A stretch of 64,000 bases of DNA from Pseudoclavibacter chungangensis (GTDB lineage Bacteria; Actinomycetota; Actinomycetes; Actinomycetales; Microbacteriaceae), in assembly GCF_013410545.1 (NCBI RefSeq), contig NZ_JACCFV010000001.1, positions 248,001 to 312,000 on the forward strand. The letters are read 5' to 3'. Positions 6,237 to 35,978 of this stretch are shown piece by piece. The position numbers were made by a program, and so were the translations under genes. The number at the start of each line of letters is the position of its first letter. Position 1 is the stretch's first letter. The notes beneath the pieces were generated by a model. It had not been told where the DNA came from and searched no databases. It saw nothing but the letters and a program-made list of their open reading frames with translations.

Positions 6237-7748
6237 GTGACCGACACGATCGATCCCAACATCCACTCGACGGGCGACTTCGGCGCCCCGACGGACTCCG
6301 ACCGCAACTCGCTCAGCATCGGGCCGAACGGACCGCTGCTGCTGCACGACGTGCGGCTCGTCGAGACGCTCGCGCACTTCAACCGCGAGCGGGTGCCGGA
6401 GCGCAACCCGCACGCCAAGGGCGCGGGCGCGTTCGGCACGTTCGAGACGACCGAGGACGTCTCGAAGTACACGAAGGCCGCGATCTTCCAGCAGGGCCAG
6501 AAGGTCGACATGCTCGCGCGCTTCTCGACCGTCGCCGGCGAGCAGGGCTCGCCCGATACGTGGCGCGACGTGCGCGGCTTCTCGCTCAAGTTCTACACGC
6601 CCGAGGGCAACCTCGACATCGTCGGCAACAACACGCCCGTGTTCTTCGTGCGCGACCCCATGAAGTTCCCGCACTTCATCCGTTCGCAGAAGCGCCTGCC
6701 CGACTCGGGCCTCCGCGACAACACGATGCAGTGGGACTTCTGGACGCAGAACCCCGAGTCGGCCCACCAGGTGACCTACCTCATGGGTGACCGCGGCCTG
6801 CCCCGTTCGTGGCGCGAGATGAACGGCTACTCGTCGCACACCTACGCGTGGATCAACGCCGAGGGCGAGCGCTTCTGGGTGAAGTACCACTTCATCTCGA
6901 AGCAGGGCGTGCACACGCTCACGAACGAGGAGGCCGACGAGCTCGCGGGCACGGACGCCGACTTCCACCGTCGCGACCTGTTCGAGGCGATCGGTCGCGG
7001 CGAGTTCCCGCAGTGGGAGCTCAAGGTGCAGGTCATGCCGTACGAGGACGCGAAGACGTACCGCATCAACCCGTTCGACCTCACGAAGGTCTGGTCGCAC
7101 GCGGACTACCCGCTCATCCCCGTCGGCACGATGACGCTCGACCGCAACCCGAAGAACTTCTTCGCGGAGATCGAGCAGGCCGCGTTCGCACCGTCGAACA
7201 CGGTGCCCGGCACGGGCATCTCGCCCGACAAGATGCTGCTCGGACGCGTGTTCGCGTACGCCGATGCGCAGCGCGCCCGCATCGGCACCAACTACGCGCA
7301 GTTGCCCGTCAACCGGCCCGTCGTCGAGACGAACAGTTACACGTTCGACGGTCACATGAGCTACCTCAACTCGGGTGACGCGCCCGTGTACGCGCCGAAC
7401 TCGTTCGGTCGGCCGTGGGCGGACGAGGTCGGCGAGGTCGACAACTCGTGGGAGTCGGACGGCGAGCTCGTGCGCGCCGCGTACACGCTGCGCCCGGACG
7501 ACGACGACTTCTCGCAGCCGGGACACCTCGTACGCGACGTGTTCGACGACGCGGCACGCGAGCGCTTCGTCGAGACCGTCGCGGGCGCTCTCGAGCCGGT
7601 CATCGAGCCCGTGCTGTCGAACGCGTTCCAGTACTGGAAGAACGTCGACGCCGAGATCGGTGCGCGCATCGAGGCCGCCGTGCGAGAGCGCCACGGCGAC
7701 CAGCAGCCGGGCGGCACGCCGCTCAAGGAGGCGACGCCGGTCGGCTGA
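6237..7748 (+). CDS. katA: monofunctional haem catalase (small-subunit, clade 3 type)
   Basis: A 503-residue catalase that decomposes hydrogen peroxide. The distal histidine H59 sits in [15 protein letters not shown], the distal asparagine in [13 protein letters not shown], and the haem-ligand tyrosine is Y341 in [12 protein letters not shown]. The length and lack of a C-terminal flavodoxin-like domain fit the small-subunit NADPH-binding group. Translation starts at GTG 6237 after AGAAGGAGA. It is downstream of a Fur-family regulator and followed by a perfect hairpin terminator. Confidence 0.95.
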
Positions 7749-7764
7749 CGACCCGGCGGTTCCG

Positions 7765-7806
7765 CGACGGGCAGGACGGGAGCATCGGCTCCCGTCCTGC
7801 CCGTCG
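7765..7806. terminator. hairpin terminator after katA
   Basis: Perfect inverted repeat: arms of about 19 bp (7765-7783 and 7788-7806) around an ATCG loop, starting 16 bp after the catalase stop. Confidence 0.85.
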
Positions 7807-7993
7807 TCGTTCCGCCCGTCGTCGTCCCGCCAGTCGTCGTTCCACGCGATGTCGTTCCGGGCGGCGGCGGTTCGCCGTGCGACACCGGGTCGATTCGGGA
7901 ATCATCGAGAGCGGGCCGACCGTGTCGGACCGCGCCGGTCGGCGCGGGTGCATCCCGCGAGCACCGGCCGTGAGCGATCCCTGGAGGAGCATC

Positions 7994-9043
7994 GTGAGCA
8001 CGAACATCGATCCGAGGCACGACGGACCGGACGAGCAGAACGTTGACCGCGTGGCCGACGCGATCCTCGTCGTGTACGCGGGCGGCACGTTCGGCATGCG
8101 CGATCTCGGGCGTGGGCTCGAGGCCGTGCCCGACATCACCCCGATCGTGGCCGGGCTCATGGACCGCCGCGAGCGCGAGACCGGCGAGCCGCTCGCGTGG
8201 GACCTCGTGTCCGTGACGCCCGCGATCGACAGCGCCGAGGCCGACGCGTCCACCGCGCCGTCCCTCGCCCGACTCGTGCGTCGACACGTCGAGGCCGGCG
8301 CATACCGGGGCGTCGTGATCGTCCACGGCACCGACACGCTCGCGCACACCGCCGCACGCCTCGCGTTCGACCTCGCCGACCTCGACCTCGTCGTCGCGTG
8401 CACCGGATCGCAGATCCCGCACGGCGCGCCCGATAGCGACGCCGACGCGAACTTCACCGACGCCGTCCGCGTGGCCGCGGGCGACGCGGCACCCGGCGTC
8501 CGCATCGTGTTCGGCGGTCGCTGCCTCCTCGGGGTGCGTGCGACGAAACGCTCGAGCGAGGACCTCGACGGGTTCACGGCACACCGGGCGCCGGGTGGCT
8601 CGCCCGTCGGCGTCCCGCGGGACGTCACGCGCGCACTCGCCGAGCGCCGTGACGCGCCGAGTACACCCATCGGGCTGCTGCACGTGTCGCCCGGTCTCGT
8701 CCCGGCCGTGGCCGACGCCGTCGCCCGCGCGTACCCCGCCGGGTTCGTGCTCGCGTGCTACGGCGCCGGGACGGCGCCCGGGTTCGTCGCAGCCACCGTG
8801 CGCGCCGTGGCCGCGGCGGGCGCGGTCGTCGTCGCGATCACGCAGTGCGAGGACGGGGGCGTCCACCTCGACCGTTACGCGGTCGGGGCGGCACTCGCCG
8901 ACGCGGGCGCGGTCGACGGGGGCGATCTGACCGCCGAGGCCGCGGTCGCGAAGCTCGGCGCACTCGTCGACGCGGGCCTCGCGCGCGCCGACGTCGTGCG
9001 GCTGCTCGGCGCGAACCTCGTCGGGGAGCGCAGCCCCGCCTGA
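7994..9043 (+). CDS. ansA: L-asparaginase, type I-like
   Basis: A 349-residue asparaginase/glutaminase-fold enzyme hydrolysing L-asparagine to aspartate and ammonia. The first catalytic motif VVYAGGTFGM holds the nucleophilic threonine near T32, and VIVHGTDTLAHTAARLAF holds T113-D114 of the second motif. A conserved lysine follows in RATKRSS. No signal peptide is present, so it is cytoplasmic. The start is GTG 7994, preceded by GGAGG at six bases; an earlier GTG at 7971 lacks a ribosome-binding site. It stands alone between two terminator-bounded regions. Confidence 0.85.
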   Translation: MSTNIDPRHDGPDEQNVDRVADAILVVYAGGTFGMRDLGRGLEAVPDITPIVAGLMDRRERETGEPLAWDLVSVTPAIDSAEADASTAPSLARLVRRHVEAGAYRGVVIVHGTDTLAHTAARLAFDLADLDLVVACTGSQIPHGAPDSDADANFTDAVRVAAGDAAPGVRIVFGGRCLLGVRATKRSSEDLDGFTAHRAPGGSPVGVPRDVTRALAERRDAPSTPIGLLHVSPGLVPAVADAVARAYPAGFVLACYGAGTAPGFVAATVRAVAAAGAVVVAITQCEDGGVHLDRYAVGAALADAGAVDGGDLTAEAAVAKLGALVDAGLARADVVRLLGANLVGERSPA

Positions 9044-9436
9044 GCCTCCCCGCGGGTGCGGCCCCGCCCGCTCCGTCGGCCGCGAGCCCGGCCCCGACCG
9101 CCCCGCCGCGAGCGCCGACGGGACGTCCGCCACGCGCCGGGCGCGTGCTGCCCGCCGCGACATCCTGCGACGCGCGAGGTCCCGGGGCTTCCGCGACGGC
9201 CCGCGGCCCTGTAGAACGGCTCTCGCACCGTATGCGGATCGTCCGTCGCGGTGCGACGACGAGGAGCGGCAGCGACGCCGCGGGAGGGGCGAGGATGCCG
9301 GGACCCGTCGGGACCGCGCCCCGAGCGCGCACGACGCCACACCGTGCCCCGTCGCCGACTCGTTCCGGCGCACCGACGCGCCGACCGCGGCCGCCTCGGC
9401 GCTGCCGCGGGTCCCACGACCGAGAAAGGCACCCAC
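9044..9436. other. intergenic region, no gene seen
   Basis: 393 bp of very GC-rich sequence between ansA and the gluconate permease. No convincing coding sequence, RNA gene or strong hairpin is seen; it must hold the permease promoter, but I cannot place it. Confidence 0.5.
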
Positions 9437-10897
9437 ATGCACCTCCTCTCGCTCACCCTCGCGCAGGCGGCCGCGGACCCACCCGACGGATTCCTCGGCT
9501 GGCTCCGAACGAGCACCGCCGGGCTCATCATCCTCTGCGTCGTCGCGATCGGTGTCCTGCTCGCGCTCATCATCGCGCTCAAGATCGAGCCGTTCATCGC
9601 GCTGCTCATCACGGGCCTCGCACTCGCCCTCGTCGCGGGGCTCAGCGTCTACGAGCTCGTCGGCGTCGCCGTCCCCGATCCGTTCGACGCGGAACAGATC
9701 AAACCTGGCGACTCGATCCTCGAGAAGGGCTTCGGCGGGATCCTCGGGCACATCACGATCATCATCGGGCTCGGGACGGTGCTCGGCGCGATCCTCGAAC
9801 GCTCCGGTGGCGCCGACGTGCTCGTCTCGAAACTCCTCGAACGCATGGGTGACCGCTTCGCGCCCATCGCCCTCGGCATCGCGGGGCTCATCTTCGGCAT
9901 CCCCGTGTTCTTCGACGTCGGCATCTTCGTGCTCGCGCCGCTCGTCTACATCGCCGCGCGCCGCGGCGGGAAATCGCTCGCGCTGTACGCCCTGCCGATG
10001 CTCGCGGGCCTCTCGATGACCCACGCGTTCCTGCCGCCGCACCCCGGCCCGACCGCGCTCGCGGGATCGTTCGGCGTCTCGCTCGGCTGGATCATCGTCA
10101 TGGGCTTCGCGTGCGGTATCCCCGCCTTCATCGCCTCGGGTATCGCGTGGCCGCTGTGGATCGGGAAGCGCATCCACGTCGCGCTCCCCGAGGACTCCCT
10201 CATCGAGCCCGAGGACGACGGGCGCCCGCCCGTGTCGATCTGGTCGGTCGCGCTCGTGATCCTCATCCCGCTCGTGCTCATCCTCGCCTCGACCGTCGGC
10301 TCGCTCGTCATCACCGATCCGGGGTGGCTCGAGTTCGTGACGTTCGTCGGGAACCCGTCGGTCGCCCTCACGATCGCGGTGCTCGTGGCGATGTACCTGC
10401 TCGGCATCCGGCGCGGGACGACGCTCGCGGAGCTCGGTCACGTGACGGGCGAGTCGCTCAAACCGATCGGCATGATCCTGCTCGTCGTCGGTGCGGGTGC
10501 GTTCTTCGGCGCCGTCATCACGAAGACGGGCATCGGGACGGTGCTCTCCGACGTCTTCAGCGGCCTCGGCCTGCCCGTGTTCGTGACGGCGTACATCATC
10601 GCGTGCGTGCTGCGGCTCGCGCAGGGCTCCGCGACGGCCGCGATCGTCATCACGGCCGGCATCCTGCAGCCCGTCGTCGCGGGCGGCGACTACTCGCAGC
10701 CGCAGCTCGCCCTCATCGGCATCGCGATCGCCGCGGGCTCGATCATCGCGTCGCACGTCAACGACGGCGGATTCTGGATCATCCAGCGCTACTTCAACAT
10801 GACGGTGCCGCAGACGCTCGCGACCTGGACGGTGCTGGAGACGATCCTCTCGCTCGTCGGCTTCGCCATGGTGTGTCTGCTCTGGCTCGTCGTCTGA
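9437..10897 (+). CDS. gntP: gluconate:H+ symporter, GntP family
   Basis: A 486-residue polytopic membrane protein with about 12 hydrophobic segments. It resembles GntP/GntT permeases across its length, with the family signatures IFGIPVFFDVGIFVLAPL, THAFLPPHPGPTA and, near the end, SHVNDGGFW. It should import gluconate or a related sugar acid with protons. The ATG at 9437 follows GAAAGGC. No gluconate kinase or other pentose-phosphate entry gene is adjacent, so the substrate is inferred from the family. A perfect palindromic terminator follows. Confidence 0.88.
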   Translation: MHLLSLTLAQAAADPPDGFLGWLRTSTAGLIILCVVAIGVLLALIIALKIEPFIALLITGLALALVAGLSVYELVGVAVPDPFDAEQIKPGDSILEKGFGGILGHITIIIGLGTVLGAILERSGGADVLVSKLLERMGDRFAPIALGIAGLIFGIPVFFDVGIFVLAPLVYIAARRGGKSLALYALPMLAGLSMTHAFLPPHPGPTALAGSFGVSLGWIIVMGFACGIPAFIASGIAWPLWIGKRIHVALPEDSLIEPEDDGRPPVSIWSVALVILIPLVLILASTVGSLVITDPGWLEFVTFVGNPSVALTIAVLVAMYLLGIRRGTTLAELGHVTGESLKPIGMILLVVGAGAFFGAVITKTGIGTVLSDVFSGLGLPVFVTAYIIACVLRLAQGSATAAIVITAGILQPVVAGGDYSQPQLALIGIAIAAGSIIASHVNDGGFWIIQRYFNMTVPQTLATWTVLETILSLVGFAMVCLLWLVV

Positions 10898-10920
10898 CTC
10901 GGATCGCGCGCCGACGCGGC

Positions 10921-10956
10921 TCGCGCTGCCGCCCGCACGTGCGGGCGGCAGCGCGA
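10921..10956. terminator. palindromic terminator between gntP and the acyl-CoA ligase
   Basis: A 36-bp perfect palindrome (two 18-bp arms) between the convergent ends of the permease and the acyl-CoA synthetase, able to serve both. Confidence 0.85.
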
Positions 10957-10963
10957 TCGTCGC

Positions 10964-12547
10964 TCACGCGGTCGCGGCCGGAGCGCGCAGGTCCTTGCGC
11001 AGGATCTTGCCCGAGGCGGACTTCGGGATCGCGTCGACCCACTCGACGACGCGCACCTTCTTGTAGGGCGCGACGCGCTCCGCGACGAACGCGAGCACCT
11101 CGTCGTCGCTCGTCGACGTGCCCGGCTGCGCGACGACGAACGCCTTCGGCACCTCCTCGCCCTCGTCGTCGAGCACCCCGACGACGGCGGCGTCCGCGAT
11201 GCCCGGGTGCTCGAGCAGGAGCGACTCGAGCTCGGAGGGCGCGACCTGGTAGCCCTTGTACTTGATGAGCTCCTTGAGGCGGTCGACGATGTGGACGACG
11301 CCGTCCGCGTCGACGGTCGCGACATCACCCGTCTTGAGCCAGCCGTCGTCGGTGAGCGTCTCGGCCGTCGCCTCGGGGTTGTTGAGGTAGCCGGTCATGA
11401 CCATCGGCCCACGGCACCAGAGCTCGCCCGGCGCCGACACGCCGTCGGTCACCTCGACGTCCTCACCCGTCGCGGGGTCGACGAGGCGGAACTCGACGTT
11501 CGGGATCGCGAGGCCGACCGAGCCGGGGGAGATGTCGTCCCGGTCGAACGGCGTGACGTGCGAGACGGGGCTCATCTCGGTCATCCCGTAGCCCTGCAGC
11601 ATGCGGGCCCCGAGTCGCGCCTCGATCGCGCGGCCGAGGTGCTCGTCGAGCGGTGCGGCGCCCGAGAGCACGTGGCGGACGGTCGACGTGTCGACCGTGT
11701 CGACGAGCGGGTGCTTCGCGAGCGCGACGCCGATGGGCGGCGCGATGAACAGGTACGTCACGCCGTGGTCCTCGATGAGGCGCAGGAACTCGGCGAGGTC
11801 GAACCGCGGCATCGTGACGAGCGTCGCGCGCTCGCGCAGGCCGAGGTTGAGCAGGGCCGTCATGCCGTAGATGTGGAAGAACGGCAGGACGGCGAGCAGG
11901 ACGTCGTCCCGCCCGACGCCGAGCATCGCGCGGGCCTGCTCGACGTTCGCGACGAGATTGCGGTGCGTGAGCATGACGCCCTTCGGCAACCCCGTCGTCC
12001 CCGACGAGTACGGCAGCACCGCGAGGTGCTCCGCCGGCTCGAACGACACGTCCGGTGCGGGCGCACCCGCCGCGAGCAGATCGCGTAGCGACTCGTGCCC
12101 CTCGGCGCCGTCGAGCACGATGACCGCCGAGTCGGGCAGCCCGACGTTGCGTGCGGCCGTCGTCGCGGCCTCGAGCAGTGGGCTCGCCGTCAGGAGCAGC
12201 TCGGCCCCCGAGGCGCGCAACTGCGACTCGAGGTCCTTCACGGTCGCGAGGCTGTTGACGGTCGTGGCGGTCGCGCCCGCGCGCAGGATGCCGTGGAACG
12301 CGATCACGAAGCCGCTCGAGTTCGGGCAGTGGAGGGCGACGACGTCGCCGACGCCGATGCCGCGCGCCGCGAGCGCACCGGCGACGGCCTCGATCCGGGC
12401 GGCGAGGTCGCCGTAGCTCGTCTCGGCGCCGCTCGGCCCGTCGACGAGGGCGGTCTTCTCGCGATCCTCGTCGGTGAGCGAGCCGAACAGGGAATCGAAC
12501 ACGGAGACGTCGGGGACGACGACATCGGGGAGGGTGCTGCGGTACAT
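10964..12547 (-). CDS. AMP-forming acyl-CoA synthetase, 4-coumarate-CoA-ligase-like
   Basis: A 527-residue ANL-superfamily ligase that should activate a carboxylic acid to its CoA thioester via an acyl-adenylate. It has the P-loop YSSGTTGLPKGVMLTHRN, the FFHIYGM and GYGMTE motifs, DGWLKTGD, DRLKELIKYKGYQVAPSE and the C-terminal catalytic lysine in PKSASGKILRKDL. The motif set and length are closest to 4-coumarate/aryl- or medium-chain acyl-CoA ligases. The ATG at 12547 has GAAGGAG upstream. It is transcribed away from the clpP pair across 272 bp. The true substrate cannot be read from sequence. Confidence 0.88.
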   Translation of the reverse strand: MYRSTLPDVVVPDVSVFDSLFGSLTDEDREKTALVDGPSGAETSYGDLAARIEAVAGALAARGIGVGDVVALHCPNSSGFVIAFHGILRAGATATTVNSLATVKDLESQLRASGAELLLTASPLLEAATTAARNVGLPDSAVIVLDGAEGHESLRDLLAAGAPAPDVSFEPAEHLAVLPYSSGTTGLPKGVMLTHRNLVANVEQARAMLGVGRDDVLLAVLPFFHIYGMTALLNLGLRERATLVTMPRFDLAEFLRLIEDHGVTYLFIAPPIGVALAKHPLVDTVDTSTVRHVLSGAAPLDEHLGRAIEARLGARMLQGYGMTEMSPVSHVTPFDRDDISPGSVGLAIPNVEFRLVDPATGEDVEVTDGVSAPGELWCRGPMVMTGYLNNPEATAETLTDDGWLKTGDVATVDADGVVHIVDRLKELIKYKGYQVAPSELESLLLEHPGIADAAVVGVLDDEGEEVPKAFVVAQPGTSTSDDEVLAFVAERVAPYKKVRVVEWVDAIPKSASGKILRKDLRAPAATA

Positions 12548-12780
12548 CTCACTCCTTCGTGGGATCGTGCGCTGCGCGCCTCGACGATGAGGGCACGCGC
12601 GAGCGGGCGTCGTACCGACGCCGTCCGGTGAGCGTAGCGGGCGACGACGAGCGCACCGTGAACGGCGTGGGGTTCCCACAACGACGGTCCCTCGGCTCCC
12701 CAGTCGGGTTCGTCCCTCACCGTCGGTCGTCGCGGTCGTCCAGGGGCGCGCTGCCGAGGGGCGATCCGCTCGTAGCCGCG

Positions 12781-13435: not shown

Positions 13436-14041
13436 ATGGGTGAGTACCTGGTGCCCAACGTCACGACGATCACGTCGCGCGGCGAACGTACCGTCGACGT
13501 CTACAGCCGATTGCTCGCCGATCGCATCGTGTACCTCGGCACGGCGATCGACGACGGTGTCGCGAACGTGCTCATCGCGCAGCTGCTGCACCTGGAGGCC
13601 GACGAGCCGGATTCGCCCATCAACCTCTACATCAATTCGCCCGGCGGCTCCGTGACCGCCATGCTCGGCCTGTACGACGCGATGCAGTACGTTCGGCCGG
13701 CCGTGCACACGACGTGCATCGGACAGGCCGCGTCGTCCGCGGCCGTGCTCCTCGGTGGCGGCGAGCGGGGATTCCGGTCGATCCTGCCGCGTGGGCGCGT
13801 GCTGCTGCACCAGCCCTCGTCACAGGGCGGCCGCGGGGCGATCCCCGATCTCGTCGTCGAGGCGGAGGAGATGGCGCGCGTGCGCGACGAACTCGACGGG
13901 ATCGTGGCCGCCGACACGGGGCGTACGCCCGCGCAGGTGCGCGTCGACACGGAGCGCGACCTCGTGCTCACGGCACAGGCCGCACGGGAGTACGGGATCG
14001 TCGATCACGTGCTCGCGCGCCGCGAGCTCGCCTCGGTGTGA
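13436..14041 (+). CDS. ClpP-family serine protease subunit, accessory paralogue (ClpP4-like)
   Basis: A 201-residue ClpP subunit with S100 in CIGQAASSAAVLL, H125 in RVLLHQPSSQGGRG and D175 in DTERDLVL. The handle-region segment SQGGRGAIPDLVVEAEEM is typical of ClpP. It starts one base after the preceding clpP stop, so the two are co-translated and probably assemble together. No clpX or clpC lies nearby, so an unfoldase must be supplied from elsewhere. Convergent with the regulator gene downstream. Confidence 0.87.
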   Translation: MGEYLVPNVTTITSRGERTVDVYSRLLADRIVYLGTAIDDGVANVLIAQLLHLEADEPDSPINLYINSPGGSVTAMLGLYDAMQYVRPAVHTTCIGQAASSAAVLLGGGERGFRSILPRGRVLLHQPSSQGGRGAIPDLVVEAEEMARVRDELDGIVAADTGRTPAQVRVDTERDLVLTAQAAREYGIVDHVLARRELASV

Positions 14042-14118
14042 GTGTCTGGGCGCCGCGCGGCGCCGGGGTGGTCGGCGCCGCGCGCGTGCCCGCGTTCGAG
14101 TCGGGTCGCGGCGCCGGG

Positions 14119-14673
14119 TCAGGCGGCGAGCGCGACGAGCGCACCCACGGGCGCGTTCGCCCGGATCACCGGGTCGGTCCCCGTTCCCGTCTCGTCGACG
14201 GGTACGGAGCCCGTCGCCGAGCGCAGATCGAGGGGCGCGAGCGGGACGGCCGATCGCGCACCGACCGTGGCGCCGGGGCCGATCGGCCACGCCTCCTCCG
14301 TGACGAGCGTCGCCGGTGCGCCGAACCCGGCGCGGACACGGACGCCGCGGCCCGGCCGCGCGCGCCGGGCGGTGAGCGTCACGCGCTGACGGTCCGCGGC
14401 ACGCGCGTCGGCCATGCGCCGAGCGGCGCGCTCGACGAGGTCGAGGGGGTCGAGGCCGAGCGCCTGGGCGAGCTCGCGCAGCACCTCGCTCGATGGGTCC
14501 TTACGACCGCGTTCGATCTCCGAGAGGTACTGCGGGGAGAGCGCGGCCGCGTGCGCGACGTCGACGAGCCGCTCACCGCGGCGCACGCGCTCGTCGTGCG
14601 CCTCGCGCCCGAGTGCCTCGCGGAACAGGAGCCTGCGGGGAACGGGGTGCGTGCCCCATGGGTCGTCGCTCAT
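14119..14673 (-). CDS. XRE-family regulator of clp genes, PopR/ClgR-like, with C-terminal LAA
   Basis: A 184-residue protein with an XRE helix-turn-helix at about residues 22-80, including SPQYLSEIERGRKDPSSEVL, the signature of ClgR and PopR. The C-terminal half is Ala/Val/Thr-rich with no recognised domain. The last residues are GALVALAA. In Streptomyces lividans PopR activates clpP3-clpP4 and is itself degraded by ClpP through C-terminal alanines; the LAA end here resembles that signal and the end of ssrA tags. The gene is convergent with the clpP pair and lies 86 bp downstream of the AI-2E-family gene on the same strand. Assignment as PopR orthologue is inferred from position, motif and tail. 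Confidence 0.75.
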   Translation of the reverse strand: MSDDPWGTHPVPRRLLFREALGREAHDERVRRGERLVDVAHAAALSPQYLSEIERGRKDPSSEVLRELAQALGLDPLDLVERAARRMADARAADRQRVTLTARRARPGRGVRVRAGFGAPATLVTEEAWPIGPGATVGARSAVPLAPLDLRSATGSVPVDETGTGTDPVIRANAPVGALVALAA

Positions 14674-14715
14674 GGCGACAGGCTACGACCCGCGGCGGCG
14701 AACCCGGCGGGCGAT

Positions 14716-14749
14716 CTGCTGTGAGCAGAACGACTCGGAGCAGAACGAC
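14716..14749. promoter_or_regulatory. repeats in the popR-like promoter region
   Basis: Two copies of the 12-mer GAGCAGAACGAC (14723-14734 and 14738-14749) are spaced at exactly 15 bp, preceded by the inverted repeat CTGCT-GTG-AGCAG (14716-14728). They sit 43-76 bp upstream of the regulator start, where an activator or repressor would bind. The binding protein is unknown. Confidence 0.4.
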
Positions 14750-14759
14750 GTGGGGCGCG

Positions 14760-16121
14760 TCAGGCGCGCGCGGGTGACGGACCCTCGCCGCTCGGCCCGG
14801 GGGCGGGAGTGGTTCCGGCGTCGGCGCTCGCGGGCGCGCCCTCCGCCGCCGTGCCGGAATCGGGCACCGCGTCGGCGTCCGGCGTCGCGTCTCTCTCCCC
14901 CGTCGCGTCGGAATCCCGTGTCGCGTCGGAATCGGGCGTCGTGTCGGAATCCGGTGTCGTGTCGGAATCGGGCGTCGTGTCGGAATCCGGTGTCGTGTCG
15001 GAATCGGGCGTCGCGTCGGAATCCGGTGTTGTGTCGGAATCGGGCGTCGCGTCGAGATCCGGCTTCGCGTCGATGACGAGGTTCATCCACCGGGACCGAG
15101 GATCGGCGTCGATGAGGATCGACTTCGCGAGGAGCGTCGCCGGCAGCGCGAGCAGCGCCCCGACGGGGCCGAGCGCGAACGTCCACACGAGCACGGAGAG
15201 GAAGGAGACGGTGGGCGTGACGCCCACGGCGTCCCCCGCGACCTTCGGCTGGATGAGCGATTGGGCGACGAAGTTGATGACGCACCACACGACGAGCACG
15301 ACGAGCGCGTTCACCCAGTCGTTCGCGAGCAGCGCCATGAGCACGGGCGGCACCATGCCGATGACGAAACCGATGTTCGGGATGTAGTTCGTGAGGAACG
15401 AGAACACGCCCCACACGATCGCGAACGGCACGTGCAGGATCTCGAGCGCGACGACGTCGAGCACCGCGACGATGAGGCCGAACACGGTCGTGACGATCCA
15501 GTAGCGACCCACGCCGCGGACGAAGCCGTCGAGCGCGGCGCCGAGCGCGGGACGCACCTCACGGAGCCGCGCCATGCGCCCCTCGAAGCCGATCGCGTCG
15601 AAGAACAGGAAGAACGCCGTGATGACGAGCGTGCCGAGGAACGCGAGCACGACGCCGATGTTGCTCAGCACGGCCTGCAGCGTCGAGGTGATCGCGGTCG
15701 GCGAGAGCACGCCCGACACCTGTGCGAGCAGCGTGTCCTCGGTGACGCCGAGGTCGGCGAGGAGCGTGAGGATCTCGCGGTAGAGCGCCGTGAACTCGCC
15801 CGCGTAGTGCGGCAGCTCCTGCACGAGCACCGCGACGGACCACACGAGCAGCCCGACGAACCCGATGAGCACGGCGTACAGCACGAGCAGCGTGAGCGTC
15901 GCGGCGATGATGCGATGCACCCCGTGTCGAATGAGCAACCGCATGAACGGCGAGACCGCGATGACGAGGTTGAGGCTCAGGAACACGGGCGCGACGATCG
16001 CCGACACCTGGGGGAGGGCGATGAGCACGACGAGAACGAGGGTGATCGTGCCGAGGATCGCGAGCGGGCGTCCCCACCCGGGTCGGAGCTCGGCGCTCGG
16101 TGCGGGTGATGCGATCGGCAT
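14760..16121 (-). CDS. AI-2E-family transporter-like membrane protein with acidic repeat tail
   Basis: A 453-residue protein. The first 350 residues are a PerM/AI-2E family core with about eight hydrophobic segments, including the VFSFLTNYIPNIGFVIGMVP region and IQPKVAGDAVG. Such proteins have been linked to autoinducer-2 export, but the function of most members is unknown. The start is the ATG at 16121 with GAGGAGAAG just upstream; a GTG 27 bp earlier has no such signal. The C-terminal 100 residues are unusual: nine tandem six-residue TPDSD(T/A)-type units followed by an Asp/Glu/Ala/Pro-rich tail, presumably cytoplasmic and disordered. Confidence 0.82.
   Translation of the reverse strand: MPIASPAPSAELRPGWGRPLAILGTITLVLVVLIALPQVSAIVAPVFLSLNLVIAVSPFMRLLIRHGVHRIIAATLTLLVLYAVLIGFVGLLVWSVAVLVQELPHYAGEFTALYREILTLLADLGVTEDTLLAQVSGVLSPTAITSTLQAVLSNIGVVLAFLGTLVITAFFLFFDAIGFEGRMARLREVRPALGAALDGFVRGVGRYWIVTTVFGLIVAVLDVVALEILHVPFAIVWGVFSFLTNYIPNIGFVIGMVPPVLMALLANDWVNALVVLVVWCVINFVAQSLIQPKVAGDAVGVTPTVSFLSVLVWTFALGPVGALLALPATLLAKSILIDADPRSRWMNLVIDAKPDLDATPDSDTTPDSDATPDSDTTPDSDTTPDSDTTPDSDTTPDSDATRDSDATGERDATPDADAVPDSGTAAEGAPASADAGTTPAPGPSGEGPSPARA
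14902..15063. repeat. coding minisatellite, nine 18-bp units
   Basis: Nine tandem 18-bp units (consensus GTCGTGTCGGAATCSGGY on the plus strand) lie in frame inside the AI-2E-family gene. Adjacent units alternate between two variants, giving a 36-bp higher-order period in the centre, which indicates expansion by unequal exchange. Each unit encodes six residues of the TPDSDT type, so copy-number changes would keep the frame. Confidence 0.95.
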
Positions 16122-32021: not shown

Positions 32022-33338
32022 TCAGCGACCGATCCCGGTGTTGCCGCGCCTCGGTGCGCCGGAGGTTCGGGGGCGCGTCGCGCGTTCGACGGCCCGGCGG
32101 GCCGCGTCAGTGCGTGGTGTGGGCGTCGTGTTCTGGTCGCCCGGGGTGCTACAGCTGGCGGGCGACGCCGTGCGCGAGGCATGCCGAGGGTCCGAGGCCT
32201 CCGTCGGAGTGGCGTCGCCGAGGCGTGTTCCGGCTGGTGCCCCGGCGGGCGCTCGGCCCGGCCCGCCGGGGTCGGGCCCTGTGTTCGTCCATCGTGCCCG
32301 GAAGTGCTCGTGGGCGGTGCTCGGACGCGCGGGTGCGCTCTCGTCTCGGGAGTACCGGAGGGGTCGGAGGATGCCCGGTGTGGGTGGGCGGGTGGAGGTG
32401 TCGAGGTAGTGGAGTGGTTCGGCGTCGGGTCCGAGGTCGATGCCGTTCTTCTCGAGGAGGTCGGGCGTGAGGCCGTGTGTGGCGAGGTCGATGCGGATGG
32501 GTGGTTCGGCGGGCCGGGGGAGTACACGTCGGGCGTGGTCGCTGGCGATCTCGGCGTGGTGTTCGCGGTGGACCTGGCCGATGAAGCTCAGTGCCGCGGC
32601 GGTGTAGTAGTTCGCGTAGTCGGATTCACCGGTGCGGCCGATGTTGGTCATGTCGGGCGCGGCACCGGTGTAGTAGCGCCGCATGGCGGCGAGATTCTGC
32701 TCCGAGGACTCGAGGCTGCCGTCCGGGTTGGGCGCGAAGCCGATGCCGAATCGCACGTGTCTGCGGTCGACAGAATCCGCCACGGTTCGCGCCCGCACCG
32801 TCTGGGCGACCGCCATTGGAAGCGGGACCTTGCTGCTGGCTGCGAACTCGACAAAGGTGTTCCAGCCTTCGAGGTCGGCACGATCCTCGTCCGCGCGGCA
32901 GGCGTCGAGGTACTGGTTCAGCGCCGTCGCGTAGTCGGTTTCTCCCGCTCGAGTGCTCGCGACGATCTCAGTCGAGAACAGGTGCGTGCTGTGGTCGATG
33001 TCGCTGGAATTGTGGGCGTGTTGGATTTCGTGCCCGAGGAGGTAAATGGTGTCGGCCGCGTCCGCCCAGCGTTCCGGGCGCACGCACTCGAGTGGGAGCG
33101 TGATCGCCTTGCTGGCGGGGTCGTATTGCGCGCCGGCGTGCGTTCCCTCCGGCTGCAGCACGAAGCTGGTCAAGGTTCGGTTCCCGACGGCTTCGTTGAG
33201 ATTGGCGACCAAGCGGGGAGATGCGGCGATCATGTCGCGTAGTCGTGCCGCGTCGGATCGAGTGACGCGCGGGGCCTCGATGAATCGCTCGAGCGCGGCG
33301 TGTGCATCGGGCGTCAGGTCGTGTACGGGTCGCTCCAC
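32022..33338 (-). CDS. putative HExxH zincin protein, module 1 (large gene)
   Basis: A 438-residue protein I do not recognise as a named family. Residues 99-108 read YLLGHEIQHA, a classical HExxH zinc motif (H103, E104, H107), and EDRADLEGWN (151-160) could supply the third ligand. There is no signal peptide or transmembrane helix. Residues 1-225 are about half identical to the paralogue at 34016-35320, while residues 225-438 are nearly identical. The last 100 residues are Arg/Pro/Thr-rich and disordered-looking. Its start overlaps the upstream small gene by 25 nt. The base composition is more AT-rich than its surroundings in the central part. It could be a protease effector, but this is inference. 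Confidence 0.65.
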   Translation of the reverse strand: MERPVHDLTPDAHAALERFIEAPRVTRSDAARLRDMIAASPRLVANLNEAVGNRTLTSFVLQPEGTHAGAQYDPASKAITLPLECVRPERWADAADTIYLLGHEIQHAHNSSDIDHSTHLFSTEIVASTRAGETDYATALNQYLDACRADEDRADLEGWNTFVEFAASSKVPLPMAVAQTVRARTVADSVDRRHVRFGIGFAPNPDGSLESSEQNLAAMRRYYTGAAPDMTNIGRTGESDYANYYTAAALSFIGQVHREHHAEIASDHARRVLPRPAEPPIRIDLATHGLTPDLLEKNGIDLGPDAEPLHYLDTSTRPPTPGILRPLRYSRDESAPARPSTAHEHFRARWTNTGPDPGGPGRAPAGAPAGTRLGDATPTEASDPRHASRTASPASCSTPGDQNTTPTPRTDAARRAVERATRPRTSGAPRRGNTGIGR

Positions 33339-33856
33339 CTCATCACGACCTTGGTCACGTAGCTCACGTCATTACCGAGTCGGCCGCTGCCGGCAAGTCC
33401 GTAGTTTCCACTGATCCTGCCTCGGGCGAACCGCATCGCGATCGGTTTGCCTTCGTGGGCGGGATAGATGGGATGCAGCGTGAACCCGGCCCGGCTGAGC
33501 TCCGTTTCGACCCACGCGGCATCGGGGTCGCGGACCAATGCCCGCACGTCGCGGCGCGACCTGTCGGAGCGGTCCAGCGTGAGGTCGGCTCCCGCGAATC
33601 GGTCGGGATCCGGCGCGACGTTCGCCCAGCAGTCGTAGTTCGAATTGCTCTCGTCCCGGAGGTGCCACAGGTCATTCTCGGTGGGAAGGAAGGTGATGCC
33701 GAGTGTGCGTTCGAAGCGGTCGGGTGTGGTGTCGGGATCGTCGGTGCTCTCGATGATGAATCGGATCATGCCGCGGAGCCAGGAGCTGGCCTTCTGTTCG
33801 AGTTCGGGACTCGGGACGACGTCCCAGTGGGGTGTTCCGGTCCGGTCTTCGTTCAT
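33314..33856 (-). CDS. partner protein of the zincin, module 1 (small gene)
   Basis: A 180-residue soluble protein of no recognised family. ATG at 33856 follows GAGGAA. Residues 1-55 (TPHWDVVPSPELEQKAS region) match the second-module partner at all but about five positions, while the rest is only about one-third identical. The C-terminal part looks beta-rich (FARGRISGNYGLAG, VVMRWSDPY). It ends inside the start of the zincin gene, so the two are translationally coupled. Role as inhibitor, immunity protein or chaperone of the zincin is plausible but untested. Confidence 0.6.
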   Translation of the reverse strand: MNEDRTGTPHWDVVPSPELEQKASSWLRGMIRFIIESTDDPDTTPDRFERTLGITFLPTENDLWHLRDESNSNYDCWANVAPDPDRFAGADLTLDRSDRSRRDVRALVRDPDAAWVETELSRAGFTLHPIYPAHEGKPIAMRFARGRISGNYGLAGSGRLGNDVSYVTKVVMRWSDPYTT

Positions 33857-33982
33857 GCTGTTCCTCGCCGTGTCGTGTGTTCGTGTCGTGACGTGCGTGG
33901 GTCGTCTCGTTGCGGTGCCGCGTCGCCGTGTGGGCGTTCAGGTTACGGTCCTGGGGCCCGTGGGTGGGGTCGGTTCGTCGCA

Positions 33983-33993
33983 CTGTGGACAAC
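33983..33993. promoter_or_regulatory. conserved upstream element, module 1
   Basis: CTGTGGACAAC (TTGTCCACA on the coding strand side) about 130 bp upstream of the module 1 start. The same 11-mer occurs at 35968-35978, about 135 bp upstream of module 2. In both cases a TAACCT/TAGTCT hexamer lies 38-39 bp downstream of the element in the direction of transcription and could be a -10 box. It resembles an actinomycete DnaA box but occurs singly. Confidence 0.4.
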
Positions 33994-34015
33994 GGGGCGG
34001 GCAGCGGCTGGCGGC

Positions 34016-35320
34016 TCAGCGGCCGATCCCGGTGTTGCCGCGCCTCGGTGCGCCGGAGGTTCGGGGGCGCGTCGCGCGTTCGACGGCCCGGCGGGCCGCG
34101 TCGGCGCGTGGTGTGGGCATCGTGTTCTGGCCGCCGGGGGTGCTGTGGCCGCTGGATGACGGCGTGCGCGGGGCGCGCCGAGGGTCCGAGGCCTCCGTCG
34201 GAGTGGTGTCGCCGAGGCGTGTTCCGGCTGGTGCCCTGGTGGGCCCTCGGGCCTCGGCGCGTGTGCTCGTCGATCGTGCCCGGAGGTGTTCGTGGACGGT
34301 GCTCGGACGCGAGGGTTCGTTCTCGTCGCGGGAGTACCGGAGTGGCTGGAGGATGCCCGGCGTCGGTGGGTGGGTGGAGGTGTCGAGGTAGTGGAGTGGG
34401 GCGGCGTCGGGGCCGAGGTCGATGCCGTTCTTCTGGAGGAGGTCCGGGGTGAGTCCGTGTGTGGCGAGGTCGATGCGGATGGGTGGTTCGGCGGGCCGGG
34501 GGAGTCCGCGTCGGGCGTGGTCGTCGGCGATCGTGGTGTGGTGTTCGCGGTGGATCTGGCCGATGAAGCTCAGTGCGGGGGCGGCGTAGTAGTTCGCGTA
34601 GTCGGATTCACCGGTGTGGCCGATGTTGGTCATGTCGGGCGCGGCGCCGGTGTAGTAGCGACGCATGGTCGCCAGGTTGCAGTCCGAAGGAGTGAGAGTC
34701 CCATCGGGTTCCGGCTGGAACCCTTCCTTGAACACCAGCCCATCGGCCTCGCTGACACGTGCGACCGTCCACGCACGCTCGGTCCAGGCGACGGCATCGG
34801 GGACGTCCACCCCACTCGTCGCGGCGAACTCGACGAACGCGTTCCAGCCCGCGAGATCGGCGCGATCCTCGTCGGCTCTGGACACGTCGAGGAACGCATT
34901 CAGTGCGTGCGCGTAGTCGACCCCTCCGAACCCGGCGATTGTCATTACACGCGCTGTGAAGCTCGCTTCACCACGCTCGACGTCGTTCGTGTGGTTCGCA
35001 TGATGGAGCTCGTGTCCGAGGAGATACACCGTATCGGCCGCGTCATACCAATCCTGCGGACGTGTGCTGTCCAGTTCGAGTGTGATCGTGCGATGCGCCG
35101 GATCGTACTGGGCACCGGCATGAGTGTCCTCGGGCTGCACCTGGAACCCGACCAGGTTTCCCGTGCCGACGGCATTGTTCACGCTCACGATCAGGCGAAG
35201 GGACGAGGCGATCAGGCGCCGCAGCGAGTCGGCGTCCGCTCGGGCGACGTGCGGGGCGCTCGCGAAGCGGTCTATCGCCTCGTGCGACGCCTCGCTCAGG
35301 ACTCGTAGGGATCGCGCCAC
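34016..35320 (-). CDS. putative HExxH zincin protein, module 2 (large gene)
   Basis: A 434-residue paralogue of the module 1 protein. The zinc motif is YLLGHELHHA with H103, E104 and H107 at exactly the same positions, and EDRADLAGWN follows at 151-160 (the glutamate at 157 is alanine here, so E151, D152 or D155 is a better third-ligand candidate). The N-terminal 225 residues have diverged by about half; the C-terminal 200 are nearly identical to module 1, down to the last residues TSGAPRRGNTGIGR. Again it overlaps the small gene by 25 nt. No secretion signal is visible. Confidence 0.65.
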   Translation of the reverse strand: MARSLRVLSEASHEAIDRFASAPHVARADADSLRRLIASSLRLIVSVNNAVGTGNLVGFQVQPEDTHAGAQYDPAHRTITLELDSTRPQDWYDAADTVYLLGHELHHANHTNDVERGEASFTARVMTIAGFGGVDYAHALNAFLDVSRADEDRADLAGWNAFVEFAATSGVDVPDAVAWTERAWTVARVSEADGLVFKEGFQPEPDGTLTPSDCNLATMRRYYTGAAPDMTNIGHTGESDYANYYAAPALSFIGQIHREHHTTIADDHARRGLPRPAEPPIRIDLATHGLTPDLLQKNGIDLGPDAAPLHYLDTSTHPPTPGILQPLRYSRDENEPSRPSTVHEHLRARSTSTRAEARGPTRAPAGTRLGDTTPTEASDPRRAPRTPSSSGHSTPGGQNTMPTPRADAARRAVERATRPRTSGAPRRGNTGIGR

Positions 35321-35835
35321 GACATCACGACCCTGTTGGCGTACCCGCCGCTCGGATCCCGCTCGCGCCCGCCGCGGAGTCCGATGGTGCCTCCGACCCG
35401 TCCACGTGCGAATCTGATCGCGACGAGTCGGTCACCGTGGTTCGGGAAGACCGGGCGAAGTCCGAATCCGGCATCGGCGAGTTCAGTCCGAACCCACGTG
35501 GCGTCGGGAACCCTGACGAGGGGGCTCGTGTCGGCGGAGGCGGTGTTGACGCGGTCGATGGTGAGGCTTGCGCCGGTTCTCGGCGCAGGCGGGAGAGTGA
35601 TGCCGACTTCGCAGATGTACGTCGGGTCACGTCGGTCATCGCTGTAGTGCCCCCGTACACCGGGCTCGGTGGTGATGCCGAGTGTGCGTTCGAAGCGGTC
35701 GGGTGTGGTGTCGGGCTCGTCGGTGCTCTCGATGATGAATCGGATCATGCCGCGTAGCCAGGAGCTGGCCTTCTGTTCGAGTTCGGGACTCGGGACGACG
35801 TCCCAGTGGGGCGTTTCGGACCGGCCCTCGTTCAT
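35296..35835 (-). CDS. partner protein of the zincin, module 2 (small gene)
   Basis: A 179-residue paralogue of the module 1 small protein. ATG 35835 has AGGAGGAG upstream; longer in-frame extensions are Arg-rich shadow sequence. Residues 1-55 are almost the same as in module 1, while the remaining 125 residues are strongly diverged apart from a shared C-terminal pattern (IRFARGRVGG, VVMSWRDPYES). Function unknown; see the module 1 entry for possible roles. Confidence 0.6.
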   Translation of the reverse strand: MNEGRSETPHWDVVPSPELEQKASSWLRGMIRFIIESTDEPDTTPDRFERTLGITTEPGVRGHYSDDRRDPTYICEVGITLPPAPRTGASLTIDRVNTASADTSPLVRVPDATWVRTELADAGFGLRPVFPNHGDRLVAIRFARGRVGGTIGLRGGRERDPSGGYANRVVMSWRDPYES

Positions 35836-35967: not shown

Positions 35968-35978
35968 CTGTGGACAAC
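35968..35978. promoter_or_regulatory. conserved upstream element, module 2
   Basis: Second copy of the 11-mer CTGTGGACAAC described for module 1, followed on the coding side by a TAGTCT hexamer at the same spacing (39 versus 38 bp). Confidence 0.4.

What the first reader, a model, noticed from the sequence alone, without database searches (positions are those of the whole stretch)
32022..35835. Tandem zincin/partner modules with conserved ends and a diverged centre across the gene junction
Two direct copies of a two-gene unit encode a small protein overlapping by 25 nt a 434-438 residue HExxH protein. The first 55 residues of the small protein and the last 200 of the large one are nearly identical between copies, while the C-terminal two-thirds of the small and the N-terminal half of the large have diverged in parallel. 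The diverged parts are adjacent in DNA and could recombine as one cassette. The zinc motif sits at residues 103-107 in both. This looks like a protease or effector and its cognate inhibitor, immunity protein or chaperone, diversifying together. Unlike classical polymorphic toxins, the variable catalytic part would be N-terminal.
Basis: partly seen in the sequence, partly recalled or inferred. Interest (0 to 1): 0.82.

Follow-up and report, generated by a model that had tools for sequence, protein, structure and literature searches.

The report
Tandem zinc-protease toxin and immunity modules
Two neighbouring copies of a likely antibacterial protease toxin and its immunity protein keep similar ends but have very different middles; they are relatives of weapons of Gram-negative Xanthomonas-type bacteria and sit, unexpectedly, in what looks like a Gram-positive genome.

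Summary
Two tandem modules on the - strand each encode a ~180 aa protein overlapping by 25 nt a 434-438 aa HExxH protein. The outer ends (small codons 1-56; large codons ~221 to stop) are similar. The centre across the gene junction is diverged even at synonymous sites, so recombination shaped the module, not only selection on protein. The same genome holds a second array with the same mosaic but its own end sequences, including an orphan small gene beside a toxin remnant, and a third pair whose HExxH is lost. The large protein's folded part (1-329) is homologous to XVIPCD-tailed zincin effectors of Xanthomonadales type IV secretion; the small protein to the lipoprotein often encoded just upstream of them. 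Best reading: an effector-immunity family of X-Tfe/X-Tfi ancestry in an actinobacterium, without XVIPCD and with cytosolic immunity; not a formal X-Tfe. Delivery is unknown: the genome has a Gram-positive-type T4SS cluster and an unlinked coupling protein, but nothing ties them to these genes. Unexplained: a DnaA-box-like 9-mer precedes 5 of 6 small genes; 15 copies in the 1.77 Mb held.

The parts
35296..35835 (-). small2: putative immunity protein, 179 aa
   Evidence: AF2 model pLDDT 85.0, pTM 0.82; family linkage
34016..35320 (-). large2: HELHH zincin-like effector, 434 aa; folded 1-329, disordered tail 330-434
33314..33856 (-). small1: putative immunity protein, 180 aa
32022..33338 (-). large1: HEIQH zincin-like effector, 438 aa
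35668..35835 (-). conserved head of module 2 (small2 codons 1-56; holds two predicted helices, 17-36 and 45-52)
   Evidence: helices
34661..35667 (-). diverged centre of module 2 (small2 from codon 57, overlap, large2 codons 1-220 with HExxH and E151)
34016..34660 (-). conserved tail of module 2 (large2 from codon 221)
   Evidence: the last ~95 residues differ in the allele P0005
33689..33856 (-). conserved head of module 1
32679..33688 (-). diverged centre of module 1
32022..32678 (-). conserved tail of module 1
35969..35977 (-). TTGTCCACA (DnaA-box-like) upstream of small2
33984..33992 (-). TTGTCCACA (DnaA-box-like) upstream of small1
   Evidence: these two are the only copies in the window

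Best explanation
Each module is an immunity-effector pair. The large protein is a zinc-dependent (gluzincin-like) protease toxin homologous to HExxH X-Tfe effectors of Xanthomonadales. The small cytosolic protein, encoded first, binds the toxin's catalytic half and keeps it inactive until export, or protects against incoming kin toxin. Modules multiply by tandem duplication. Recombination through the conserved outer ends (N-terminal helices of the immunity protein; C-terminal part and tail of the toxin) replaces or homogenises DNA, so that one central cassette carries both halves of a matched specificity pair. Toxin deletion leaves orphan immunity genes. Shown: homology, gene order, linkage, mosaic structure, an orphan small gene with a toxin-like remnant. 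Suggested only: the zincin fold class. Inferred: proteolysis, toxicity, neutralisation, export, and the direction of exchange (gene conversion of ends or cassette replacement).
Confidence: 0.72

Rival explanations
1. Gram-positive T4SS effector: the toxin is recognised through its disordered arginine-rich tail by a VirD4-like coupling protein and injected into neighbouring cells by the genome's own T4SS. This adds a delivery route to the best explanation.
For: Family relatives carry the C-terminal signal of T4SS substrates (PMC6759196 passages). Own genome has VirB4 (AAA_10, 7.4e-36), a TcpC/VirB8-like protein (4.4e-7), an M23 peptidase and membrane-type genes in one cluster and a TraG-type coupling protein (1.3e-29). 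Tails are positive: 7-9 R+K against 1-3 D+E in the last 30 residues of the five toxins.
Against: Two TrwC relaxase matches exist, so the T4SS may serve conjugation. Coupling protein, T4SS cluster and effectors lie far apart. VirB4 is found in 3 genus mates without a toxin match (one of them is 83% complete). No shared tail on other proteins. Nearest DnaA-box-like sites are over 4 kb from the coupling gene and over 12 kb from the cluster.
Confidence: 0.3
2. Intracellular toxin-antitoxin or abortive-infection system: the protease stays in the cell and is held by the small protein until stress or phage infection releases it.
For: Small protein lacks a signal peptide by eye; overlapping genes; DnaA-box-like site hints at coupling to replication.
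Against: No PADLOC match for 6 proteins or PHROGs match for 4; large2 has no tblastn match in 72,556 plasmid or 50,697 phage records; homologues carry a secretion domain and lipoprotein partners.
Confidence: 0.2
3. The small protein is an export chaperone or adaptor, not an immunity protein.
For: Upstream, overlapping, conserved N-terminal helices.
Against: Orphan and multiple small genes; many relatives are exported lipoproteins, and XAC0096/XAC0097 is listed as an X-Tfe/X-Tfi pair (PMC10933484 passage).
Confidence: 0.1
4. Simple old tandem duplication with strong positive selection in the centre; no recombination.
For: Centres of a pair are closer to each other (51%, 36%) than to those of other loci (22-31%).
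Against: Synonymous sites are also near saturation in the centre and not in the ends, in two pairs; selection on protein alone does not do this.
Confidence: 0.03

Closest known systems
X-Tfe/X-Tfi pairs of Xanthomonadales, zincin type (X. citri XAC0096, 'putative HExxH metallopeptidase', with XAC0097)
   Same: Homologous zincin part, homologous partner encoded just upstream, C-terminal tail after an N-terminal toxin domain. That XAC0096 itself is in this sequence family is inferred from motif and literature; its sequence was not fetched.
   Different: No XVIPCD; disordered R-rich tail instead; partner without lipoprotein signal by eye; presumed Gram-positive genome; three dispersed loci far from the T4SS genes found.
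Tandem T7SS immunity genes esaG and tipC with recombination through conserved blocks (PMC9484751: abstract, outline, passages)
   Same: Conserved blocks, at the 5' and 3' ends for tipC, shared by tandem paralogues.
   Different: Here the blocks bracket two genes, so toxin half and immunity half lie in one exchangeable cassette.
Polymorphic toxins (CDI, Rhs, LXG; PMC3482391: listing abstract and passages; layout partly recalled)
   Same: Constant trafficking part, variable toxin part beside variable immunity gene, orphan immunity genes.
   Different: Mirror order: immunity gene first, variable toxin part N-terminal, constant part C-terminal.
V. cholerae T6SS immunity arrays by effector displacement (PMC5361080: abstract, opening pages and outline)
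   Same: Orphan immunity left after toxin loss.
   Different: Array of paralogues within one family rather than displaced unrelated pairs.

Membership tests
X-Tfe/X-Tfi (Xanthomonadales T4SS effector and immunity) | C-terminal XVIPCD (PF20410) | tested here: not met
   No hit at E<=1 in the two window toxins nor at E<=0.1 in the three other own-genome toxins
X-Tfe/X-Tfi (Xanthomonadales T4SS effector and immunity) | Toxin domain homologous to XVIPCD-bearing effectors | tested here: met
X-Tfe/X-Tfi (Xanthomonadales T4SS effector and immunity) | Immunity gene directly upstream | tested here: met
   Own genome 5 of 5 toxins; fetched loci 74 of 80 after iteration
X-Tfe/X-Tfi (Xanthomonadales T4SS effector and immunity) | Immunity protein a periplasmic lipoprotein (usual for envelope-acting effectors) | tested here: not met
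   N-termini show no hydrophobic stretch or lipobox; read by eye, no predictor run
X-Tfe/X-Tfi (Xanthomonadales T4SS effector and immunity) | Export by a class A T4SS | tested here: inconclusive
   A Gram-positive-type T4SS cluster and a coupling protein exist; use by these proteins not testable here
Zincin (gluzincin-like) metallopeptidase | HExxH on a helix | tested here: met
   HExxH 103-107 in predicted helix 91-109
Zincin (gluzincin-like) metallopeptidase | Third, acidic zinc ligand on a following helix | tested here: inconclusive
   E151 is invariant in A9 and lies in predicted helix 137-168; its ligand role is inferred, geometry not measured
Zincin (gluzincin-like) metallopeptidase | Solved zincin fold as best structural match | tested here: inconclusive
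Zincin (gluzincin-like) metallopeptidase | Proteolytic activity | not testable with these tools
   No assay
Classical polymorphic toxin (CDI/Rhs/LXG) | Variable toxin domain at the C-terminus after a constant N-terminal trafficking region | tested here: not met
   Variable part is N-terminal
Known anti-phage defence protein | Match to a PADLOC model | tested here: not met
   0 families at E<=0.1 for 6 proteins

The most novel reading that the evidence does not exclude
A Gram-positive bacterium uses its own T4SS to inject protease toxins into competitors, recognised by an arginine-rich disordered tail in place of XVIPCD. Each locus carries its own outer tags, so that recombination swaps a single two-gene specificity cassette (immunity half plus catalytic half) without touching delivery or expression signals, and the modules are switched together through DnaA-box promoters.
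Probability: 0.17. Interest if true: 0.85.

Novelty: new variant of a known kind. Interest (0 to 1): 0.62.

Why it matters
[quoted passage not shown] Relatives of T4SS bactericidal effectors in an actinobacterial genome that also encodes a T4SS make an interbacterial case testable by deleting one gene. The modules also show how a matched toxin-immunity pair could diversify in one recombination step: the two variable halves are contiguous and the shared ends lie outside, seen in two arrays of one genome and, with different ends, in two Xanthomonas loci (L038, L028). Print: a full-text search for XVIPCD with Actinobacteria returned 0 papers. For XVIPCD with recombination or toxin domain (247 papers hold two terms, 10 listed) and effector-immunity with gene conversion or mosaic (193 papers, 12 listed) no listed title or abstract start describes this layout. 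Only open-licence papers were searched.

Tried and rejected
Pfam, NCBIfam, PADLOC and PHROGs gave no family above cut-off for the window proteins; the weak XopG/HopH-type hint (E 0.027) was not taken as membership. Plasmid and phage tblastn with large2: no match. A tail profile was used to look for other proteins with the same export tail: five strong matches, all toxins; two weak ones (0.03, 0.89) lie opposite to frames that look like real genes (150 of 217 candidates scored). No PDB sequence relative of the small family at E<=0.001 (best 0.28). PDB sequence search with the toxin profile found XVIPCD structures at the tail end and only weak M13 peptidase matches (E 0.13 or worse) at HExxH. 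Foldseek gave nothing at E<=0.001 for either model. The Microlunatus pair (L041) is real, but its toxin's last 73 codons overlap a frame on the other strand that reads like an ABC permease, so its tail was not used as evidence. The idea of a relaxase-free T4SS was dropped. T7SS and contractile injection systems were not searched in the genome. Whether the other ten DnaA-box-like sites mark further effectors: looked at (the tenth shares its region with 3536819); they lie in or near frames that look ordinary; none has a toxin-like pair by eye. One search was aimed at the wrong strand and adds only the genome's size and place.
Full report
WHAT IS THERE. The window is bases 248001-312000 of a 3,985,007-base single-contig genome. 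On its - strand, small2 (35835-35296, 179 aa) overlaps large2 (35320-34016, 434 aa) by 25 nt, and small1 (33856-33314, 180 aa) overlaps large1 (33338-32022, 438 aa) by 25 nt. Both large proteins carry HExxH at residues 103-107. The DNA repeats begin 15 nt before the small start codon and end at the large stop codon.

MORE THAN CHANCE. Codon analysis separates three segments. Small head: 93% aa identity, pS 0.08. Centre: small remainder 40%, pS 0.61; large 1-216 51%, pS 0.62. Large from 217: 83%, pS 0.15. The best two breakpoints on third positions are small codon 57 and large codon 221, with 2dLL 141.9 against at most 25.6 in 200 shuffles on the same grid. Because synonymous sites are near saturation only in the centre, the segments have different histories; protein-level selection cannot be the whole reason.

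THE SAME PATTERN ELSEWHERE. The genome has three further toxin relatives and four further small relatives. In L008 the order is small B1 (6885-7403) - toxin B1 (7396-8598) - a transposase (8803-10122, ISL3 type by recall) - orphan small B2 (10394-10927) with ~25 codons behind it that by eye resemble a toxin start - small B3 (11035-11580) - toxin B3 (11561-12766). B1 and B3 show the same mosaic with heads and tails of their own: borders at small codon 51 and toxin codon 229-230, 2dLL 164.3 against at most 25.9. The small-gene borders of the two loci fall at nearly the same aligned position (57 minus a six-residue gap). In L009 a third pair has HGLHR where HExxH stands, so that toxin is probably inactive. 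An allele on a 3.3 kb contig, P0005, matches large2 at 335 of 339 residues before 340 (one of the four differences is the start codon read as V) and at 77 of 95 after: the tail turns over independently of the cassette. In Xanthomonas cannabis L038 three immunity genes share a signal-peptide head (0.90-0.94 nt identity) but not the domain (0.66-0.68); its two toxins have pS 0.16-0.18 in three of the last four 25-codon blocks (0.49 in the fourth, 0.33 over four end codons) against 0.53-0.92 before. In L028 the heads reach 0.99 against 0.64, and the second toxin has pS 0.14 or less over its last ~114 columns against 0.58-0.84 before. That these toxin ends are XVIPCD is inferred from position. It is not general: 6 of 26 within-locus immunity pairs, in 4 of 14 loci, show conserved heads, with equal medians overall; of six toxin pairs profiled, L077, L078 and L095 are diverged throughout and L054 is conserved at the other side. 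Other second hits (L021, L024, L094) were not profiled.

WHAT IT IS. Large2's relatives in a database of 5.8 billion proteins are few (7996 best candidates scored): after P0005 and P0006, which is large1 from a later start, six remain, five of them with PF20410 precomputed, named X-Tfes_XVIPCD. The alignment runs to about residue 330 and includes HExxH, D135-Y136, R148, E151, the G/S/Y block near 234-245 and a PPT block near 318. One scan of one genome per species for 84,980 species with two motif patterns found 93 relatives; the best 80 were kept. By title nearly all are Xanthomonadales (Lysobacterales) genomes or MAGs, with two Variovorax (L042, L054) and one actinobacterium, Microlunatus endophyticus (L041). 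HExxH is present in 76 of the 80 frames read. An HMM from the seven actinobacterial small proteins (one of them L041's own) found a partner beside the toxin in 55 of 80; iterated, in 74 of 80. Of the six without, L050 and L090 keep HExxH and L070, L084, L085 and L095 do not. Many partners are lipoproteins ('ACAH' type; a simple lipobox pattern matched 39 of 74 and missed several obvious ones). In the actinobacterial partners no signal is seen by eye.

DISTRIBUTION. The toxin query hit only the own genome among 10 genus, 100 family and 198 phylum genomes (in the last two only the best candidates of each genome were scored). The five own-genome toxins form one clade (0.979), each tandem pair a subclade (0.998, 1.0; partly owed to the homogenised end); Microlunatus branches elsewhere. 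One acquisition followed by spread within this genome is the simplest reading.

HOW IT LIKELY WORKS. Immunity first, toxin second, variable halves contiguous, constant ends outside. Recombination between paralogues through the ends can replace both halves of a matched pair at once. Orphan small genes and multiple immunity copies fit toxin-immunity conflict. X-Tfis of X. citri mainly guard against the cell's own toxin (PMC10933484, passages), and cytosolic forms of X-Tfi have been proposed (PMC6536674, passages), so a cytosolic immunity protein is plausible. Proteolysis, toxicity and neutralisation are inferred.

DELIVERY. The genome encodes a cluster with an M23 peptidase, a 674 aa protein without Pfam match, VirB4 (AAA_10 7.4e-36), two further proteins of 227 and 103 aa (membrane-type by eye) and a TcpC/VirB8-like protein whose start is unclear (C1:3101564-3110542), and a TraG-D_C coupling protein at C1:602531-604417. 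Clusters with most of these genes exist in three of nine genus mates in which no toxin was found. Two TrwC relaxase matches are present. The tail is specific to the five toxins as far as scored. So T4SS delivery is a testable idea, not a result.

A SHARED PROMOTER SITE. TTGTCCACA, or its reverse, lies 62-134 nt upstream (distances) of five of six small genes, in all three loci; B3, whose leader seems lost with toxin 2, lacks it. In 1,768,000 bases held (44% of the genome; pieces chosen by me, module loci included) there are 15 copies; expected from the other ten in 6 x 250 nt is 0.0085. A1/A2 and B1/B2 are related by duplication, so the independent count is three loci of three. Other copies lie between frames that I read as dnaA and dnaN and before one read as dnaB (gene names by recall), so it is probably the DnaA box (consensus recalled). 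This suggests shared control tied to replication; untested, and unexpected for toxin modules.

VERDICT. The immunity-effector reading is well supported, the Microbacteriaceae-wide diversification is not. It works like an X-Tfe/X-Tfi pair but fails the XVIPCD criterion, hence a new variant of a known kind. Papers were seen as follows: PMC6759196 passages and section 7; PMC6536674, PMC10933484 and PMC3482391 passages; PMC12857230 passages and section 22; PMC9484751 abstract, outline and passages; PMC5361080 abstract, opening text and outline.

Noticed in passing
window 33984-33992 and 35969-35977; genome 3254811, 3258320, 3580306: DnaA-box-like TTGTCCACA upstream of 5 of 6 immunity-type genes in three loci; only 15 copies in 1.77 Mb held
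   Followed up: partly
L100:6564-15542 (C1:3101564-3110542): Gram-positive-type T4SS cluster with VirB4, TcpC-like and M23 genes, chromosomal, no coupling protein seen beside it; related clusters in 3 of 9 genus mates
   Followed up: partly
C1:602531-604417: Solitary TraG/VirD4-type coupling protein (628 aa) between an aminotransferase-like and a metal-regulator-like gene (neighbours named by eye)
   Followed up: partly
L008:8803-10122 and 13682-15034: Two transposase genes (ISL3 type by recall), one inserted between modules of the second array
   Followed up: no
L008:10917-11000: Toxin-start-like remnant behind orphan immunity gene B2, fused to the leader of the next module
   Followed up: partly
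L009:6668-8244: Third pair with HGLHR in place of HExxH; partner frame open
   Followed up: partly
C1:589164-593055 (L097): Three tandem paralogues whose N-termini share an 'LTRR.AREIERRTG.RPVA' segment
   Followed up: no
L054, L077, L094 and related loci: Some relatives are longer (~570-650 aa) with HExxH near residue 210-220, i.e. an extra N-terminal part; in L054 two neighbours are conserved at the N-terminal side instead of the tail
   Followed up: no
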